Shown: positions 21,633-29,964 of the stretch, in pieces
How the letters are laid out: every line of letters begins with the position of its first letter
How positions within the stretch are numbered: position 1 is the first letter of the stretch
Assembly (NCBI RefSeq): GCF_019200975.1
Contig: NZ_JAHTMR010000006.1
Location: 186,001 to 250,000 of the forward strand
Length of the DNA: 64,000 nt
Direction: 5' to 3'
Origin: Pseudomonas sp. PD9R
GTDB taxonomy: Bacteria; Pseudomonadota; Gammaproteobacteria; Pseudomonadales; Pseudomonadaceae
Made by a program: the position numbers and the translations under genes
Notes under the pieces: generated by a model
Database searches by the model: none
What the model saw: the letters and a program-made list of their open reading frames with translations, nothing else
Told to the model about the DNA's origin: nothing

Positions 21633-21658
21633 TTTTTTAGCGTATGGGAGATTCTGTT

Positions 21659-22630
21659 TTGCTCACTCCAATCCCTGTCACCATCCTCAGCGGCTTCCTA
21701 GGCGCTGGTAAAACCACCCTGCTGCGCCACCTGCTCAAGGCCGAGCACGGCCTTAAAATCGCCGTGATCGAAAACGAATTCAGCGACGCCGGTATCGACA
21801 CCCAGTTGCTGGGCGATGAGCCGGTACAAGTCATGACGCTGTCCAATGGCTGCGTCTGCTGCACCATCCACACCGACCTGACCAAGGCCCTGTACTTGCT
21901 GCTCGAACGCCTGGACAGCGGCGACATCGCCTTCGATCGTCTGGTGATCGAATGCACCGGCCTGGCCGACCCCGCACCGGTGGCGCAAACCTTTTTCATC
22001 GACGAAGAATTGCGCGAGCGCTACATTCTCGACGGCATCATCACCCTGGTGGACGCGGCACATGCCGAGCTGCACCTGACTCAGACCATCGCTCAGGCAC
22101 AAATCGGTTTCGCTGACCGCTTGCTGGTGAGCAAGCGTGATCTGGTGGATGAACCGACCTTTACCGCGTTGAGCGAGCGCCTGACCCGAATCAACCGCCG
22201 TGCACCCATCCGCGTGGTCGACCACGGCAACATCGACCTGGCCGAGTTGCTCGACGTGCGCGGTTTCAACCTCAATGCCGACCTCGGTGGCGGCGTGAGT
22301 TTGCGACCCGTTAGCCAAGCCGCGTCCATCGACCGCATTTCCAGCCTGGTGCTGCGTACCGACAAACCGCTGGATATCGACAAACTCAGCGAGTTCATGA
22401 ACGAACTGCTGGAAGAGCATGGCAAGCAATTGTTGCGCTACAAAGGTGTGCTGAGCATCGTTGGCGAGCCACGGCGCATGGTGTTTCAGGGTGTGCTGAA
22501 GCTGTACGGCTTTGACTGGGACACTGAGTGGGCCGAGGACGAAGTGCGCGAGAGCGTGATTGTGTTTATCGCCGATGATTTGCCGGCAGAGAAAATTCGG
22601 GAAGGGTTTGCGCGGGTCGAGGCTGCCTGA
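21659..22630 (+). CDS. yjiA: YjiA/CobW-like G3E GTPase
   Basis: About 323 residues of the G3E metallochaperone GTPase family. Walker A is SGFLGAGKTTLL, the metal-binding CxCC motif is NGCVCCTI, Walker B region is VIECTGLADPAP, and SKRDL is the base-recognition site. I chose the TTG at 21659, which has GGGAG 8 nt before it and gives MLTPIPVTILSG; an in-frame ATG at 21644 (328 residues) has no ribosome site. It follows cstA and ybdD, the same trio as yjiY-yjiX-yjiA in E. coli. The metal carried is not evident. Confidence 0.87.
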   Translation: MLTPIPVTILSGFLGAGKTTLLRHLLKAEHGLKIAVIENEFSDAGIDTQLLGDEPVQVMTLSNGCVCCTIHTDLTKALYLLLERLDSGDIAFDRLVIECTGLADPAPVAQTFFIDEELRERYILDGIITLVDAAHAELHLTQTIAQAQIGFADRLLVSKRDLVDEPTFTALSERLTRINRRAPIRVVDHGNIDLAELLDVRGFNLNADLGGGVSLRPVSQAASIDRISSLVLRTDKPLDIDKLSEFMNELLEEHGKQLLRYKGVLSIVGEPRRMVFQGVLKLYGFDWDTEWAEDEVRESVIVFIADDLPAEKIREGFARVEAA

Positions 22631-22670
22631 GAGAGCCTGTACTTGTCTTGAAACGAACAACGGAATATCG

Positions 22671-22695
22671 AACGCCCGCCTGATGCGGGCGTTTT
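22671..22695 (+). terminator. Terminator after yjiA
   Basis: ACGCCCGC-CTGAT-GCGGGCGT stem followed by TTTGTTTTTTT. It separates the core unit from the AT-rich lanthipeptide locus. Confidence 0.88.
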
Positions 22696-22997
22696 GTTTT
22701 TTTGAAAGTGAGAATAGTTAACTTATTTAAATAAAATCTCCTGGATTTGTTTGGTTCGGGTTTGCGTGAATTCAAGGTTTGTTTCATTCGGCAAGATATG
22801 CAGAGTTTCGGTTTTGTTGGGTTCTAGTGCTGAATGGGTGTTTTGTTGTTTCTTTTTGTTAGTTGAATTTCTCACCGGTTGGAAAGTTTTAATCTACATT
22901 TTACATTTGGTTTTGATTGGCTGGAGGTACAGCAAGCTAGTGAGTGCTACCTTTTGTCGGCGCCATTCAAGGCGACTTTTTTATCAGGAGAAACACT
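22696..22997 (+). promoter_or_regulatory. AT-rich leader of the lanthipeptide locus with attenuator-like hairpin
   Basis: About 300 bp without a credible gene and with much lower GC than the core around it. Immediately before the precursor's ribosome site, CGCC-ATTCAA-GGCG-AC-TTTTTT (about 22961-22982) forms a short stem followed by six T, resembling a weak terminator or attenuator. The promoter must lie upstream but no confident -35/-10 pair was picked. Confidence 0.45.
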
Positions 22998-23150
22998 ATG
23001 CAAGAACAAATTATGGATCTTTCCGGTGAACTGGATGCTGAGTTCGAAGCCTATGTAAATTCTGGTAGCGCCGGTGCTAAAGGTGGTGAAGTCATGTGCA
23101 CTATGCTTTCTTGCGAGACCTTGGGTTGCACCGTCCTCGGCTGCTGCTGA
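22998..23150 (+). CDS. lanA: Class II lanthipeptide precursor
   Basis: A 50-residue peptide with AGGAG 7-8 nt before the ATG. The leader (residues 1-30) is acidic (MDLSGELDAEFEAYVNSG) and ends in a double-glycine site, AKGG. The 20-residue core contains five Cys (core positions 4, 9, 14, 19, 20) and four Ser/Thr (Thr5, Ser8, Thr11, Thr15). Regular T-x3-C, T-x2-C and T-x3-C spacings suit thioether rings. The LanM gene follows 58 bp downstream on the same strand, which strongly supports the call. Cleavage after GG is inferred from class II leaders. Confidence 0.9.
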   Translation: MQEQIMDLSGELDAEFEAYVNSGSAGAKGGEVMCTMLSCETLGCTVLGCC

Positions 23151-23208
23151 TCCTCCAATAATACAGGGTGGGTCAGTGACCCGCCTTGTTCGTCGAGAGT
23201 GATTAGTG

Positions 23209-26200
23209 ATGTTGGCTAATGTTCTAGATTTCAAAGAGCGTAAAACATCTGGTGTGATAACTGCGCTAGATCAAGATATGTTGCGCAAGACACTGGAGCT
23301 TCTGCATAAAGATGATAAGGCTATCCAGCGTTACTTTGGTTTTGGTCGACAGGCACTGTTGAAAGATTGTCAGAACCTTTCAGTTTCGGCTAATAAGGAA
23401 AATGATTTTAAAGTTGGAGCGGTTGAGCAGAAAATCACGCTAGTTGTTTCGCTGTCATTCGGTTGCGACGTTGATCGGGATGAGTCTTTCGGCAATTTCT
23501 ACGCCCGTTGGTATAGTTATTTCAAATACGTTTTTTTACACGACAGTAAATACAGTTCCGTTTGTGAGTGGATTAGCGTTGAGGGATTTCTGCCCAGTGT
23601 CCGTCCGCATATAACCGCTCTGGTTAAAGGCTTGTCGGACAAGTCACTGGTTCATCAGTTGAACAGCCGGATCGCCGAAGACGCCGATTTCGATCTGGAA
23701 ACCTTCAACCGAGAGCTGGCAGATGAGGCACTGGTGCCGTTTCTGACATCGTACCCGCTGCTGACACACCTGCTGCTGGAGCGGATCGAAGATACAGTGG
23801 CCTACCTTTACAAGGTCATCGAACATTTCGTTGCAGACATTGATCGACTCGAGGCAGCTTACCCATTGGTCGGCAAGCGGATAGATTCGATAGACCTTGG
23901 TCTGGGGGATTCTCACGGTAATGGCGAAACAGTCTGCCGCGTTCAGGTCAGCGGTTATTCATTGGTGTACAAGCCCAGAAGCAACCGGGAAGCGGTTTTC
24001 TACAATGCATTGCTTGCACAACTGCAGTGCTCCTCAGGCAATGCCTGTTTTACCGTTTACTCACCAATCATGGTGTCTCTAGAGAACCGTTGCTGGATTG
24101 AAAACGTCGAAAACCTGGTCTGCGAAAACGAAAATGATCTGGTGCTTTTCTTTCAACGCCTCGGTGCCCAAGTTGCGGTAATCCACGCCTTGAATGGGAT
24201 CGACTTCCACTATGAGAACATCATTGCCTGCGGCAGCAGCCCGGTGATGATCGATCTGGAGTGCCTGTTCACACCGGTGATGGTCGACTTGAGGGTCAAT
24301 TTGCCTCACAGCCGCGCGCTATTCAAAACGATCAAGCTCAATAGCCAGTCGGTTTTCTCTAGCGGCTTCGTGCCATATTCGCCGGATTCCGACAATGACT
24401 ACAGTGGGCTGAGTCGGCAGAAACAATTCGTAGGCAGAAAAAAGCAGCTGGTTCGTGAGCAGGGTTTCTACCGCTTGAAACAGGTTGAGGTCGACAATCG
24501 ACCCATTATTCGGCACTTGCCCATTTTCGAAGGTGAGACGCGTTCGGTAGCTGACTACAAGGATGCATTTTTACTTGGCTTCGAGCGCGGTTACGATGAA
24601 ATGGTGAACTGTCGCAACGCTGTCCTTGAGTTGCTCACGCAGCATGCAGGGGCATTGAAATCCCGTGTCCTGATCAAAAACACCCAACGTTACGCCGACT
24701 TCATCGCAATGATGCTCCACCCCAGATTTACGCAATGCCGGGTCCAGCAGGAATTGCTAATGGCGACCTTGTGGTCGGAGTTGAGTGAAACACTCAACGA
24801 TTACGAGATTCCAAGGCATGAAATCATCGATCTGGAGAAGGCCAACTTTCCCTGTTTTACCTTGCCCTTGCTGTCCAACCACTTGTTGAATGCACATGGG
24901 CAGACCGTTGCCTCTTTGGCGATTGAGCGCCCGTTCGACAGTTGCCACCGCAAGTTGGATAGCCTTTCGCTCATAGACAAAGCTTTTCAGATACACATAT
25001 TGCAGATGTGCCTGTTTCCTGTTGCCAATGAAGACCTACCGTTGAACCGGGCGCATCAACTTAAGGCAGTGCCGCACCTGAGCCGCGCACACTACCTTCA
25101 AGGTGCCATACGCATTGCCGAGGTCATTGAAAAATGGCGCATAGAGGGGGATGAGGGTGATGTTGGCTGGACGTTCATGGACACGCACCCACGAACCCGG
25201 CGCAACTTTATTTCGCCGATGGGCAGCGGTTTGTACAGCGGGATGGGGGGATTGGCGATTTTCTACCTGAGCCTGTTCCGGGTTAGCGGGGCGGCGCATT
25301 ATCGGGACGAGGCCGAGAAAATCCTCTGTGCGATGGTCAAGTCCCATGGGCATTTTGCAAATGAGCTAACCGTGGGTGCTTATTTTGGGCTGACGTCTTA
25401 TTTATACGTTCTGGTGAATTACCAGCTTATGACTGGCCGGAAAACGTACCAGACGACTGTCGACGAGTTACTGCATAAGCTGGAAGTTTTTCCGCGCGAG
25501 GGCGATGAGTTCGATTTCATTCATGGTTGGTGCGGGACTGTGACTGTTCTGGTGAATCTCTATCAAATTGAAAAACGCGAAACGTTGCGGCATTTGATCG
25601 AAAAGTTCTCGCTAGCCATTCAGTCTGCTTTCACGCTGGAAAACGGAACATTGCTGCTCAAGGCCACGGGTAAACCTCTGTGGACCGGTTTTTCCCACGG
25701 TATCTCCGGAGCGTTACTGGCGATGGGCAAAGTGTGGGAAGTGACGAGAGATCCACTGTTGGCGAAATTGATCGCTCAGTGGCTGCAGGCGGAAAATCGC
25801 CTCACCGTCAATGGCTTCTGGGTTGATCTGCGTGAAACGGCGAAGTCGATATCCACCATCAAATGGTGTCATGGCGATGCAGGCATCCTCATTGCACGAG
25901 ATTGGCTGGTTCAGGTGATGGGTGAGGCATTCGACGACGACACCAAAGCTGCACTTGCGCGGGATATCGAACGCTGCGAACGCCATCTGTGGGATCAGGG
26001 GCTGGGTTCTGGATATAGCCTGTGCCATGGCGATTTCGGCAATCTTTTGTGCTTGCTGAAGTTCTATCGCGAGACCCGCAATGAGGAGGGTATCGCCAGA
26101 GTGAAGCAGGCGCTGTCTCAGGTGGCCCATAACTTCTTCAATGAAGACTTTCTTGATGAGCGCAATGTCCCCGACCTCGGCTTGATGCTGGGAATTTCGG

Positions 26201-26289
26201 GTGTCGGCCTGGCCCTGTTGAATACCGTGGATGACAGTTTGCCGGATGTGTTGTCGATGGAGTTTGCAAGGCCGATTACCGTCGCTTGA
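23209..26289 (+). CDS. lanM: Class II lanthipeptide synthetase LanM
   Basis: 1026 residues. The N-terminal dehydratase domain (DUF4135) shows the lipid-kinase-like active site: GDSHGNGETV with LVYKPRS, then GIDFHYENIIA and VMIDLECLF. The C-terminal cyclase (LanC-like) shows GFSHGISGALLAMG, WCHGDAG (Cys887, zinc) and LCHGDFGN (Cys939-His940, zinc). All residues expected for phosphorylation/elimination of Ser/Thr and thioether ring closure appear present, so the enzyme looks intact. The start is ATG 23209; a GTG at 23206 is adjacent. It is followed by a convergent GntR gene; no LanT protease-transporter or immunity gene is present. Confidence 0.94.
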   Translation: MLANVLDFKERKTSGVITALDQDMLRKTLELLHKDDKAIQRYFGFGRQALLKDCQNLSVSANKENDFKVGAVEQKITLVVSLSFGCDVDRDESFGNFYARWYSYFKYVFLHDSKYSSVCEWISVEGFLPSVRPHITALVKGLSDKSLVHQLNSRIAEDADFDLETFNRELADEALVPFLTSYPLLTHLLLERIEDTVAYLYKVIEHFVADIDRLEAAYPLVGKRIDSIDLGLGDSHGNGETVCRVQVSGYSLVYKPRSNREAVFYNALLAQLQCSSGNACFTVYSPIMVSLENRCWIENVENLVCENENDLVLFFQRLGAQVAVIHALNGIDFHYENIIACGSSPVMIDLECLFTPVMVDLRVNLPHSRALFKTIKLNSQSVFSSGFVPYSPDSDNDYSGLSRQKQFVGRKKQLVREQGFYRLKQVEVDNRPIIRHLPIFEGETRSVADYKDAFLLGFERGYDEMVNCRNAVLELLTQHAGALKSRVLIKNTQRYADFIAMMLHPRFTQCRVQQELLMATLWSELSETLNDYEIPRHEIIDLEKANFPCFTLPLLSNHLLNAHGQTVASLAIERPFDSCHRKLDSLSLIDKAFQIHILQMCLFPVANEDLPLNRAHQLKAVPHLSRAHYLQGAIRIAEVIEKWRIEGDEGDVGWTFMDTHPRTRRNFISPMGSGLYSGMGGLAIFYLSLFRVSGAAHYRDEAEKILCAMVKSHGHFANELTVGAYFGLTSYLYVLVNYQLMTGRKTYQTTVDELLHKLEVFPREGDEFDFIHGWCGTVTVLVNLYQIEKRETLRHLIEKFSLAIQSAFTLENGTLLLKATGKPLWTGFSHGISGALLAMGKVWEVTRDPLLAKLIAQWLQAENRLTVNGFWVDLRETAKSISTIKWCHGDAGILIARDWLVQVMGEAFDDDTKAALARDIERCERHLWDQGLGSGYSLCHGDFGNLLCLLKFYRETRNEEGIARVKQALSQVAHNFFNEDFLDERNVPDLGLMLGISGVGLALLNTVDDSLPDVLSMEFARPITVA

Positions 26290-26310: not shown

Positions 26311-27012
26311 TCAGGGAGTCGTCCTGATCAGCCGTTGTTCAAGATCATCCAGATGTTGAGTCATCAACAGAACCGCTGAACTAGCGTCGGTTTGCTCCAG
26401 GGCGTCGACAACCGCAAGGTGTTTGCTCCAGGAGCAGTAACCATCAGCCTTTTCCTTGTGCTGTGCAATCGCCAGAGAGGTCAGTGGTACCAGGCTGTGG
26501 AGGAAGTGCGCCAATGGGGTGTTAGCCGACAGGTGGGCCAGTTGCAGGTGAAATTCGCCTGAGACGCGGATAGCCGAGCCGCGCTGGTCGCACTCCAGGT
26601 ATTGGCGATGTTTTTCGATCAATTCACGCAGCGCATACAGTCCGCCACGGCGAGGCTGCTGGCAGGCAAGTTGGATGAGCTTGGTTTCCGTCAGGCGACG
26701 CGCGTGGAGAATCTGCCGGGTTTGTTCGGGAGCAGGCGTTGCGACGCGTGGACGATGATTGGGACGCAGGATGATTACCTGTTCATGGGACAGACGCGTC
26801 AGCACCCGACGCATCTGGCTGCGGCTGGCGTCGAACATCTGCGCCAGGCTCTCTTCGGTAAAACGACTGGTCGGGGTGATGCGTTGCTCAAGAATGGCAT
26901 CGAATACACGCGGGTAGAGGTCATCCACCAAGGGCTTGGCACGATGCCCGCCGCAAAAGGGCAGGGCCGTTGGTAATTCGCGGGTGTACTGCGCTGTGGC
27001 GAAGCTGTTCAT
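26311..27012 (-). CDS. GntR-family regulator with FCD domain
   Basis: 233 residues. The N-terminal winged helix is at about residues 28-90 (YPRVFDAILEQRITPTSRFTEESLAQMFDASRSQMRRVLTRL), followed by an all-helical FCD effector domain with possible metal ligands (GEFHLQLAHLS, QHKEKADGYC). The sequence differs from the next GntR gene, so the two are not recent duplicates. It lies 25 bp downstream of that regulator on the same strand and converges on lanM with 21 bp between. Confidence 0.87.
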   Translation of the reverse strand: MNSFATAQYTRELPTALPFCGGHRAKPLVDDLYPRVFDAILEQRITPTSRFTEESLAQMFDASRSQMRRVLTRLSHEQVIILRPNHRPRVATPAPEQTRQILHARRLTETKLIQLACQQPRRGGLYALRELIEKHRQYLECDQRGSAIRVSGEFHLQLAHLSANTPLAHFLHSLVPLTSLAIAQHKEKADGYCSWSKHLAVVDALEQTDASSAVLLMTQHLDDLEQRLIRTTP

Positions 27013-29418: not shown

Positions 29419-29964
29419 TTACATGGCGATATTGCGCTTAATGATTTTAAGTTCGAAGAATACTAATTTTCCACCACGCTTTTCGTAATCGGTAAGAACC
29501 GGGAAGTTTGGTGCGTCACCATAAGTATGAACCTCTCGGCGCTGTGGCCCGGTATGAAGGCGAATGGTATTGAGTTCGTCTGGCAGGTCGTCCAGATTAG
29601 AACTTTCACCCAGTCTGTTGATGATGCGAAAGTAAGTAGGGTCATTGCCGTTGAAAACTGACAAATTGCGAAGCTCGCCTTCCATGCTTGCAGTGCTTTG
29701 GAAGTTTCCGTCACTGCCTTCAATCTTGATGGTATAGACATCATCGTGATAATCGAAGAGGAACGTTTCAGGGATTACATTCTCTGTGTAACTCAGAAGA
29801 ACGTCTCCATAAAGTTCGAGCTTTTTTTCAAGGATAAGCTTGAAATCCTCAGCGATGTCAGGGGCTTCGAGCATTTTTCGAATGACCTTGCTGGCTAGCG
29901 CTACCGGCTTGTGATCCACAAAAAGTTGAGCCGTAAACGATTGGTTCTTATCTGTTTTTTGCAT
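29419..29964 (-). CDS. Protein of unknown function (accessory orphan)
   Basis: 181 residues, soluble, no signal peptide or membrane segment, with a high share of Asp/Glu/Lys and a C-terminus ending in basic residues (KIIKRNIAM). I recognise no domain. A GGAAGAG ribosome site precedes the ATG and a dedicated terminator follows the stop, so it is a real single-gene unit. The base composition is lower in GC than dctA and glyA on either side, suggesting acquisition. The 297-bp upstream gap (29965-30261) holds only AT-rich sequence and the glyA terminator. Confidence 0.72.
   Translation of the reverse strand: MQKTDKNQSFTAQLFVDHKPVALASKVIRKMLEAPDIAEDFKLILEKKLELYGDVLLSYTENVIPETFLFDYHDDVYTIKIEGSDGNFQSTASMEGELRNLSVFNGNDPTYFRIINRLGESSNLDDLPDELNTIRLHTGPQRREVHTYGDAPNFPVLTDYEKRGGKLVFFELKIIKRNIAM

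What the first reader, a model, noticed from the sequence alone, without database searches (positions are those of the whole stretch)
22696..26289. Minimal class II lanthipeptide locus in a Pseudomonas chromosome
A 50-residue precursor with double-glycine leader and a Cys/Thr-rich core lies 58 bp before an apparently intact LanM. It is AT-rich and inserted between the core genes yjiA and a GntR/dctA unit. Class II lanthipeptides are rarely described from Pseudomonas, so the product may be new.
Basis: partly seen in the sequence, partly recalled or inferred. Interest (0 to 1): 0.85.

Follow-up and report, generated by a model that had tools for sequence, protein, structure and literature searches.

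The report
Minimal Pseudomonas class II lanthipeptide locus
Two adjacent genes in a Pseudomonas chromosome encode a small peptide and the enzyme expected to knit it into thioether rings; they belong to a patchy Pseudomonas family with no recognisable exporter or leader-cutting enzyme of its own, so how the product is finished and released is an open question.

Summary
A 50-aa precursor (lanA, 22998-23150) lies 58 nt before an intact 1026-aa LanM (23209-26289) with the dehydratase and zinc-cyclase motifs in place. Both genes are under purifying selection and occur together in the same 19 of 398 genus genomes, with no orphan precursor found.

New here: (i) Three groups of loci sit among core genes; I recognised no peptide exporter, leader protease or immunity gene beside them, and the own genome's only C39 proteins are FapD and a LapB-type transporter. 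(ii) The 'double glycine' is not conserved (8 of 38 precursors). Conserved are a leader motif (S9-G10...F16) and, in 24 of 38, a three-ring core pattern T-x3-C-x-T-x2-C-T-x(2-4)-C. (iii) In 9 of 11 group A precursors two extra Cys flank that pattern, present or absent together, which suggests a disulfide clamp. (iv) A covarying hairpin separates lanA from lanM.

The rarity claim is half right: papers list such clusters from antiSMASH, and a P. ogarae class II peptide (LanII-23, four rings) was made in E. coli in 2022, probably the sister group's other precursor type. Filed as a new member of a known kind, with an unsolved export and processing step.

The parts
22670..22694 (+). terminator-like hairpin with T tail after yjiA, upstream boundary of the locus
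   Evidence: pattern scan; the number of terminator-like sites in the region is not above shuffles
22696..22997 (+). AT-rich leader region upstream of lanA (37.2% GC), presumed promoter region; no promoter call above chance
22998..23150 (+). lanA, 50-aa lanthipeptide precursor; leader about residues 1-30, core about 31-50 (EVMCTMLSCETLGCTVLGCC)
   Evidence: cleavage point inferred
23163..23189 (+). 12-bp hairpin between lanA and lanM, conserved by compensatory changes
23209..26289 (+). lanM, class II lanthipeptide synthetase, 1026 aa (in-frame GTG at 23206)
21644..22630 (+). yjiA-type GTPase, upstream core neighbour (not part of the pathway)
26311..27012 (-). GntR/FCD regulator, downstream neighbour; also present in genomes without lanM

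Best explanation
A two-gene class II lanthipeptide pathway. LanM binds the conserved N-terminal leader of LanA (E-x-I-x-x-[LM]-S-G-[DE]...F), dehydrates Thr/Ser of the C-terminal core and adds Cys thiols to give three tandem methyllanthionine rings, Thr35-Cys39, Thr41-Cys44 and Thr45-Cys49; Cys34 and Cys50 are left over and most simply form a disulfide. A hairpin between the genes lets lanA be made in excess over lanM. Leader removal and export use proteins encoded elsewhere (for the leader, host proteases such as TldD/TldE are candidates). The product most likely serves in competition between bacteria. Shown by sequence: intact enzyme, motifs, co-occurrence, purifying selection, conserved ring pattern, hairpin. 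Inferred: activity, ring connectivity, disulfide, processing, export and biological role.
For: LanM family call and fold; the dehydratase motifs GDSHGNG, KPR, DFHYEN, IDLE and the cyclase motifs TGFSHG, KWCHG, LCHG present and aligned to the same motifs of LicM2. dN/dS of lanM 0.13-0.19 in 9 pairs and of lanA 0.11-0.19 in 2 pairs (dS is near saturation in the group A lanM pairs). The precursor profile hits exactly the 19 of 398 genus genomes that carry lanM; 4 of those 19 were not in the profile. Ring pattern in 24 of 38 precursors: 11 of 11 group A, 11 of 12 group B A1, 1 of 1 third precursor, 1 of 1 group C, 0 of 13 group B A2. The one failing A1 (L019, middle Cys replaced by Tyr) is in the one genome whose lanM is split into two frames. 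Hairpin: 95.4% of cells paired, 7 of 12 pairs with changes on both sides. A Pseudomonas class II peptide, LanII-23, was dehydrated five times and carried four rings when made in E. coli (PMC9576775, section 9 read).
Against: No experiment on this peptide. The core has 5 Cys and 4 Ser/Thr, so not every Cys can sit in a ring. No exporter, protease or immunity gene was recognised nearby, so secretion and an antibacterial role are unsupported by the locus. Promoter scan not above chance. LanM divergence does not follow that of a flanking core gene, so the locus is exchanged or turns over and could be decaying in some strains. The AlphaFold model is of middling quality (mean pLDDT 68.2, pTM 0.54; TM to LicM2 and CylM only 0.44-0.51). 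That the LanII-23 gene belongs to this family was not verified.
Confidence: 0.8

Rival explanations
1. Classical double-glycine route: leader cut after GG30 and peptide exported by a PCAT (LanT-like) encoded elsewhere in the genome, giving an ordinary secreted lantibiotic.
For: GG at 29-30 in the window and GG, AA or GA at the matching place in 10 of 11 group A precursors. One of the 18 other carriers, G210, has a strong C39-ABC candidate (139.6 bits).
Against: The own genome (100% complete by the tool's estimate) has only two PF03412 hits: FapD of the functional-amyloid operon, and a LapB-type protein whose match starts past profile position 17. In the 18 other carriers the loci examined were FapD-like in 18, LapB-like in 10, HlyB-like in 1 and PCAT-like in 1; five weak hits (26.9 bits or less, frames of 724-725 aa) were not inspected. 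24 of 26 group B precursors have no GG near the core.
Confidence: 0.2
2. The modified peptide is not secreted as an antibiotic but acts inside or at the surface of the producer, for example as a metal-binding, redox or signalling peptide.
For: No exporter or immunity gene recognised beside lanAM in 24 carriers (with Pfam scans of the neighbours); housekeeping surroundings; spare Cys pair in 9 of 11 group A precursors.
Against: Patchy presence (19 of 398) and fast divergence (mean LanM distance 0.375 against 0.079 for a core neighbour in group A) look like a competition trait; trans-encoded proteases are known for other peptides of this kind (PMC10885120, passages).
Confidence: 0.2
3. A decaying remnant without function.
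For: One of 19 genus carriers (G389) has a lanM split into two frames; patchy distribution.
Against: Open 1026-aa frame with all checked motifs, dN/dS well below 1 for both genes, covarying hairpin, conserved Shine-Dalgarno region and ring pattern.
Confidence: 0.05

Closest known systems
LanII-23 from Pseudomonas ogarae (PMC9576775; section 9 and passages read)
   Same: Pseudomonas class II lanthipeptide whose precursor is modified when made in E. coli; [quoted passage not shown]
   Different: Four (methyl)lanthionines and five dehydrations. This count fits the four-Cys A2 precursors of group B, not the window's three-ring pattern with five Cys. Sequence identity not checked: the accession is in a supplement I could not open.
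'Lanthipeptide' gene clusters of P. fluorescens potato-field strains (PMC8719888; passages)
   Same: Putative precursor encoded alongside a LanM (TIGR03897), as here.
   Different: Listed only; no sequence, product, leader analysis or export question in the passages seen.
LicM2 (6st5) and CylM (5dzt)
   Same: Same two-domain class II synthetase family and catalytic motifs.
   Different: 19-21% identity; from my own knowledge these belong to two-component lantibiotic clusters with dedicated exporter-proteases.
Rhodanocins (Dyella LanII, DUF6229; PMC9576775 passages)
   Same: Gammaproteobacterial class II peptide with a possible GG motif that the C39 protease LahT150 did not cut.
   Different: None of 23 precursors scanned matches a DUF6229 model.

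Membership tests
Class II lanthipeptides (LanM pathway) | Single synthetase with DUF4135 dehydratase and LanC-like cyclase domains | tested here: met
   TIGR03897 540.6 bits; PF13575 and PF05147 above cut-off
Class II lanthipeptides (LanM pathway) | Catalytic and zinc-ligand motifs present | tested here: met
   motifs aligned to LicM2; the K255-P-R257, H236, C887-H888-G and C939-H940-G columns are invariant in 18 LanMs; residue roles recalled
Class II lanthipeptides (LanM pathway) | Precursor with leader and Ser/Thr/Cys core next to lanM | tested here: met
Class II lanthipeptides (LanM pathway) | (Methyl)lanthionine rings in the product | not testable with these tools
   needs co-expression and mass spectrometry
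Double-glycine/PCAT-exported class II lantibiotics | Conserved GG (or GA) cleavage motif | tested here: not met
   GG in 8 of 38 precursors; present in the window's own copy
Double-glycine/PCAT-exported class II lantibiotics | C39 peptidase-ABC transporter in the cluster or genome | tested here: not met
   own genome: FapD and LapB-type only; 1 of 18 other carriers has a strong candidate
Named precursor families (Pfam, NCBIfam) | Match to a curated lanthipeptide precursor model | tested here: not met
   23 precursors scanned, no lanthipeptide model matched in either library up to E 10
Same family as LanII-23 (P. ogarae) | Sequence similarity of precursor and LanM | not tested
   accession only in a supplement; ring count fits group B A2

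The most novel reading that the evidence does not exclude
The window's product is a new lanthipeptide architecture: a ladder of three tandem methyllanthionine rings clamped end to end by a disulfide between Cys34 and Cys50. Its leader family has no conserved double glycine, is matured by general host proteases, and is released, or kept inside, without any dedicated exporter; a genus-restricted lanthipeptide system that may not be a conventional secreted lantibiotic.
Probability: 0.25. Interest if true: 0.65.

Novelty: new member of a known kind. Interest (0 to 1): 0.42.

Why it matters
Characterized lanthipeptides from Gram-negative bacteria are few (PMC9576775 calls its two the first from gammaproteobacteria). 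This family gives 24 natural loci in Pseudomonas with 38 precursors, a conserved leader and a conserved ring pattern, and it poses a clean question: how does a Gram-negative cell trim and release a lanthipeptide whose locus and, for this strain, genome hold no recognisable exporter-protease of the usual kind? Deleting two genes would test its role.

Tried and rejected
Mobile-element origin: no plasmid record holds a close relative of LanM (160 records matched, listed identities 20.6-27.2%) and no phage record matched the precursor; the gaps in genomes without the locus hold REP-like palindromes (my reading) but no attachment site was apparent. Link with the GntR regulators, dctA or the orphan at 29419-29964: these occur without lanM, or lanM without them, in other genomes. 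Vertical descent at a fixed site: not supported, since LanM distances do not follow those of the GGDEF/EAL neighbour (Mantel rho -0.23 in group A, 0.27 in group B, permutation p 0.85 and 0.17); homologous exchange through the flanks is the simplest reading, untested. A terminator reading of the lanA-lanM hairpin: the scan did not list it as one. Rhodanocin/DUF6229 membership: no match. Promoter search: not above chance. The three groups are by identity and precursor type; no tree was built. Neighbour calling used ORFs of at least 90 aa with greedy overlap removal, so a small immunity protein could be missed. A stray look-up used an accession number that does not exist and returned nothing.

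Full report
Observation. lanA (22998-23150, 50 aa) and lanM (23209-26289, 1026 aa) are as described, 58 nt apart. LanM matches TIGR03897 at 540.6 bits (cut-off 304), Pfam DUF4135 and LANC_like, and among solved proteins LicM2 (E 4.3e-66) and CylM (E 3.3e-35). The motifs GDSHGNG (233), VYKPR (253), DFHYEN (332), MIDLE (347), TGFSHG (826), KWCHG (885) and LCHG (938) are present and align with the same motifs of LicM2; their roles are recalled knowledge. An AlphaFold model from 18 sequences (mean pLDDT 68.2, pTM 0.54) has LicM2 and CylM as its first two PDB matches (E 1.1e-25 and 7.4e-21, TM 0.44-0.51). The precursor matches no Pfam or NCBIfam family; in scans of 23 family members only chance-level hits appeared.

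Relatives. A LanM search over 398 genomes of the genus gave 25 with a match: 19 with a close LanM (36.9-100% identity, 491 bits or more, including one split into two frames) and 6 with only weak hits of 28 bits or less. A scan of named genomes added loci from, among others, P. fluorescens C2, P. koreensis B1M1-15, P. migulae NBRC 103157 and Pseudomonas sp. Root562 (8 loci, of which three are contigs already seen). Together 24 distinct carriers: group A (window and 10 more, 53-73% to the window's LanM), group B (12, 42-47%) and group C (1, 37%). Groups are by identity and precursor type; no tree was built. In 369 genomes of the class, 10 besides the own one have only distant LanMs (108 bits or less, against 1780 for the own one) and none besides the own one has the precursor; in a draw of 248 genomes of the family only the own genome and one distant hit (74 bits, same genus) matched. 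These are samples, not the whole groups.

Coupling and selection. A precursor profile of 23 rows found precursors in exactly the 19 genus genomes with lanM and in none of the other 379; 4 of those 19 genomes were not in the profile. dN/dS was 0.126-0.193 for nine lanM pairs and 0.187 and 0.113 for two lanA pairs; synonymous change is near saturation in the group A lanM pairs.

Precursor anatomy. Invariant in 23 aligned precursors: M1, S9, G10, F16, T35, C39, C44, C49; 90% or more: E3, I5, Y19, T41. In two group B A1 copies outside that alignment (L007, L014) the Ser is Pro and the Phe is Leu. In 38 precursors the pattern [ST]-x3-C-x-[ST]-x2-C-[ST]-x(2-4)-C is found in 24: 11 of 11 group A, 11 of 12 group B A1, the third precursor of L015, and group C; the 13 group B A2 precursors have four Cys in another spacing. 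The A1 that fails (L019: the middle Cys is Tyr) is in G389, whose lanM is split into two frames, so enzyme and substrate seem to decay together. Cys34 and the C-terminal extra Cys occur together in 9 group A precursors and are both absent in the other two (L005, L006). This may be one evolutionary event, so it is a hint of pairing, not proof. GG near the core is found in 6 of 11 group A and 2 of 26 group B precursors and not in group C; three group A copies have AA, one GA and one GL. Group B loci have two precursors as a rule; L015 has a third one downstream of lanM and L017 a duplicated A2.

Hairpin. Between lanA and lanM all 24 carriers have a G+C-rich stem. In the 110-nt folds it forms in 22; in L002 and L016 a competing fold wins (the L033 stretch was cut at a wrong place there and located properly). 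Seven stretches folded alone gave z-scores of -3.2 to -4.8. On 11 group A hairpins, trimmed by eye to the stem, 95.4% of cells pair (shuffles 86.1%), 7 of 12 pairs change on both sides (shuffled mean 3.0), and sliding the partner drops pairing to 37-47%. Trimming leans towards the structure. I read it as an element that lets more lanA than lanM be made; that is inference from lantibiotic operons in general (recalled).

Neighbourhood. The gntR-gntR-dctA block is missing in some carriers. Group C lies between a branched-chain amino-acid transporter and the succinyl-CoA ligase genes. So the neighbours are core genes; some are transporters or a protease by family (dctA, the branched-chain transporter, LonB-like), but none is a peptide exporter or leader protease that recurs with lanM. 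Of 30 yjiA loci from 59 genomes, 2 have lanM; 17 go to gntR and 11 to glyA. LanM distances do not follow those of the GGDEF/EAL protein (rho -0.23 and 0.27, not significant), and LanM is about five times more diverged (0.375 against 0.079 in group A). Exchange of the locus between strains through the flanks is likely.

Export and processing. The own genome has two C39 hits: FapD, beside FapC/E/F-like genes (my reading), and a LapB-type ABC protein beside a TolC-like gene. The 18 other carriers in the genus sample all have the FapD-like hit; G210 alone has a strong C39-ABC (139.6 bits), G058 a HlyB-like one; five weak hits were not inspected. Three PmbA/TldD family genes are in the own genome; TldD/E proteases remove leaders of other modified peptides although not encoded in their clusters, and host proteases outside the cluster are common (PMC10885120, passages). 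TldD/E is therefore a candidate, untested.

Literature. Full-text searches (listings and abstract starts seen) and passages of nine papers (one whole section of PMC9576775). PMC9576775: LanII-23 from P. ogarae, 5 dehydrations and 4 (methyl)lanthionines, in E. coli. PMC8719888: putative precursor with LanM in P. fluorescens strains. PMC8704066, PMC4528175, PMC8515041 and PMC6433849: antiSMASH or similar mentions of lantipeptide clusters in Pseudomonas. I found no description of a window-type product in these searches; subscription papers and supplements were not searchable.

Verdict. A real, intact, probably functional class II lanthipeptide locus in a genus-restricted family of which one relative has probably been made already. 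Ordinary in kind; the interest lies in the missing exporter and protease, the non-conserved GG, and the three-ring core with its spare Cys pair.

Noticed in passing
window 29419-29964 (-): AT-rich 181-aa orphan without Pfam or NCBIfam match; a 40% identical relative lies near lanM in L036, and another orphan family fills the gap between glyA and yjiA in group B genomes.
   Followed up: partly
window 26311-27012 (-): First GntR regulator is only about 46-67% identical between species while its neighbour gntR2 is 87-99% identical.
   Followed up: partly
L019/L053 (genome G389): lanM split into two frames, and its A1 precursor has lost the middle Cys: apparent joint decay.
   Followed up: partly
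L015 5098-5247; L017 1020-1175: Extra precursor genes: a third one downstream of lanM, and a duplicated A2.
   Followed up: no
L090: A distant LanM in another gammaproteobacterial genome has an 82-aa Cys-rich small ORF nearby (from position 872 on the reverse-complemented strand) that looks like a rhodanocin-type precursor; recalled resemblance only.
   Followed up: no
six genus genomes G006, G105, G169, G204, G231, G386: Weak LanM-like hits of 28 bits or less in frames of 457-988 aa, possibly other lanthipeptide synthetase classes.
   Followed up: no
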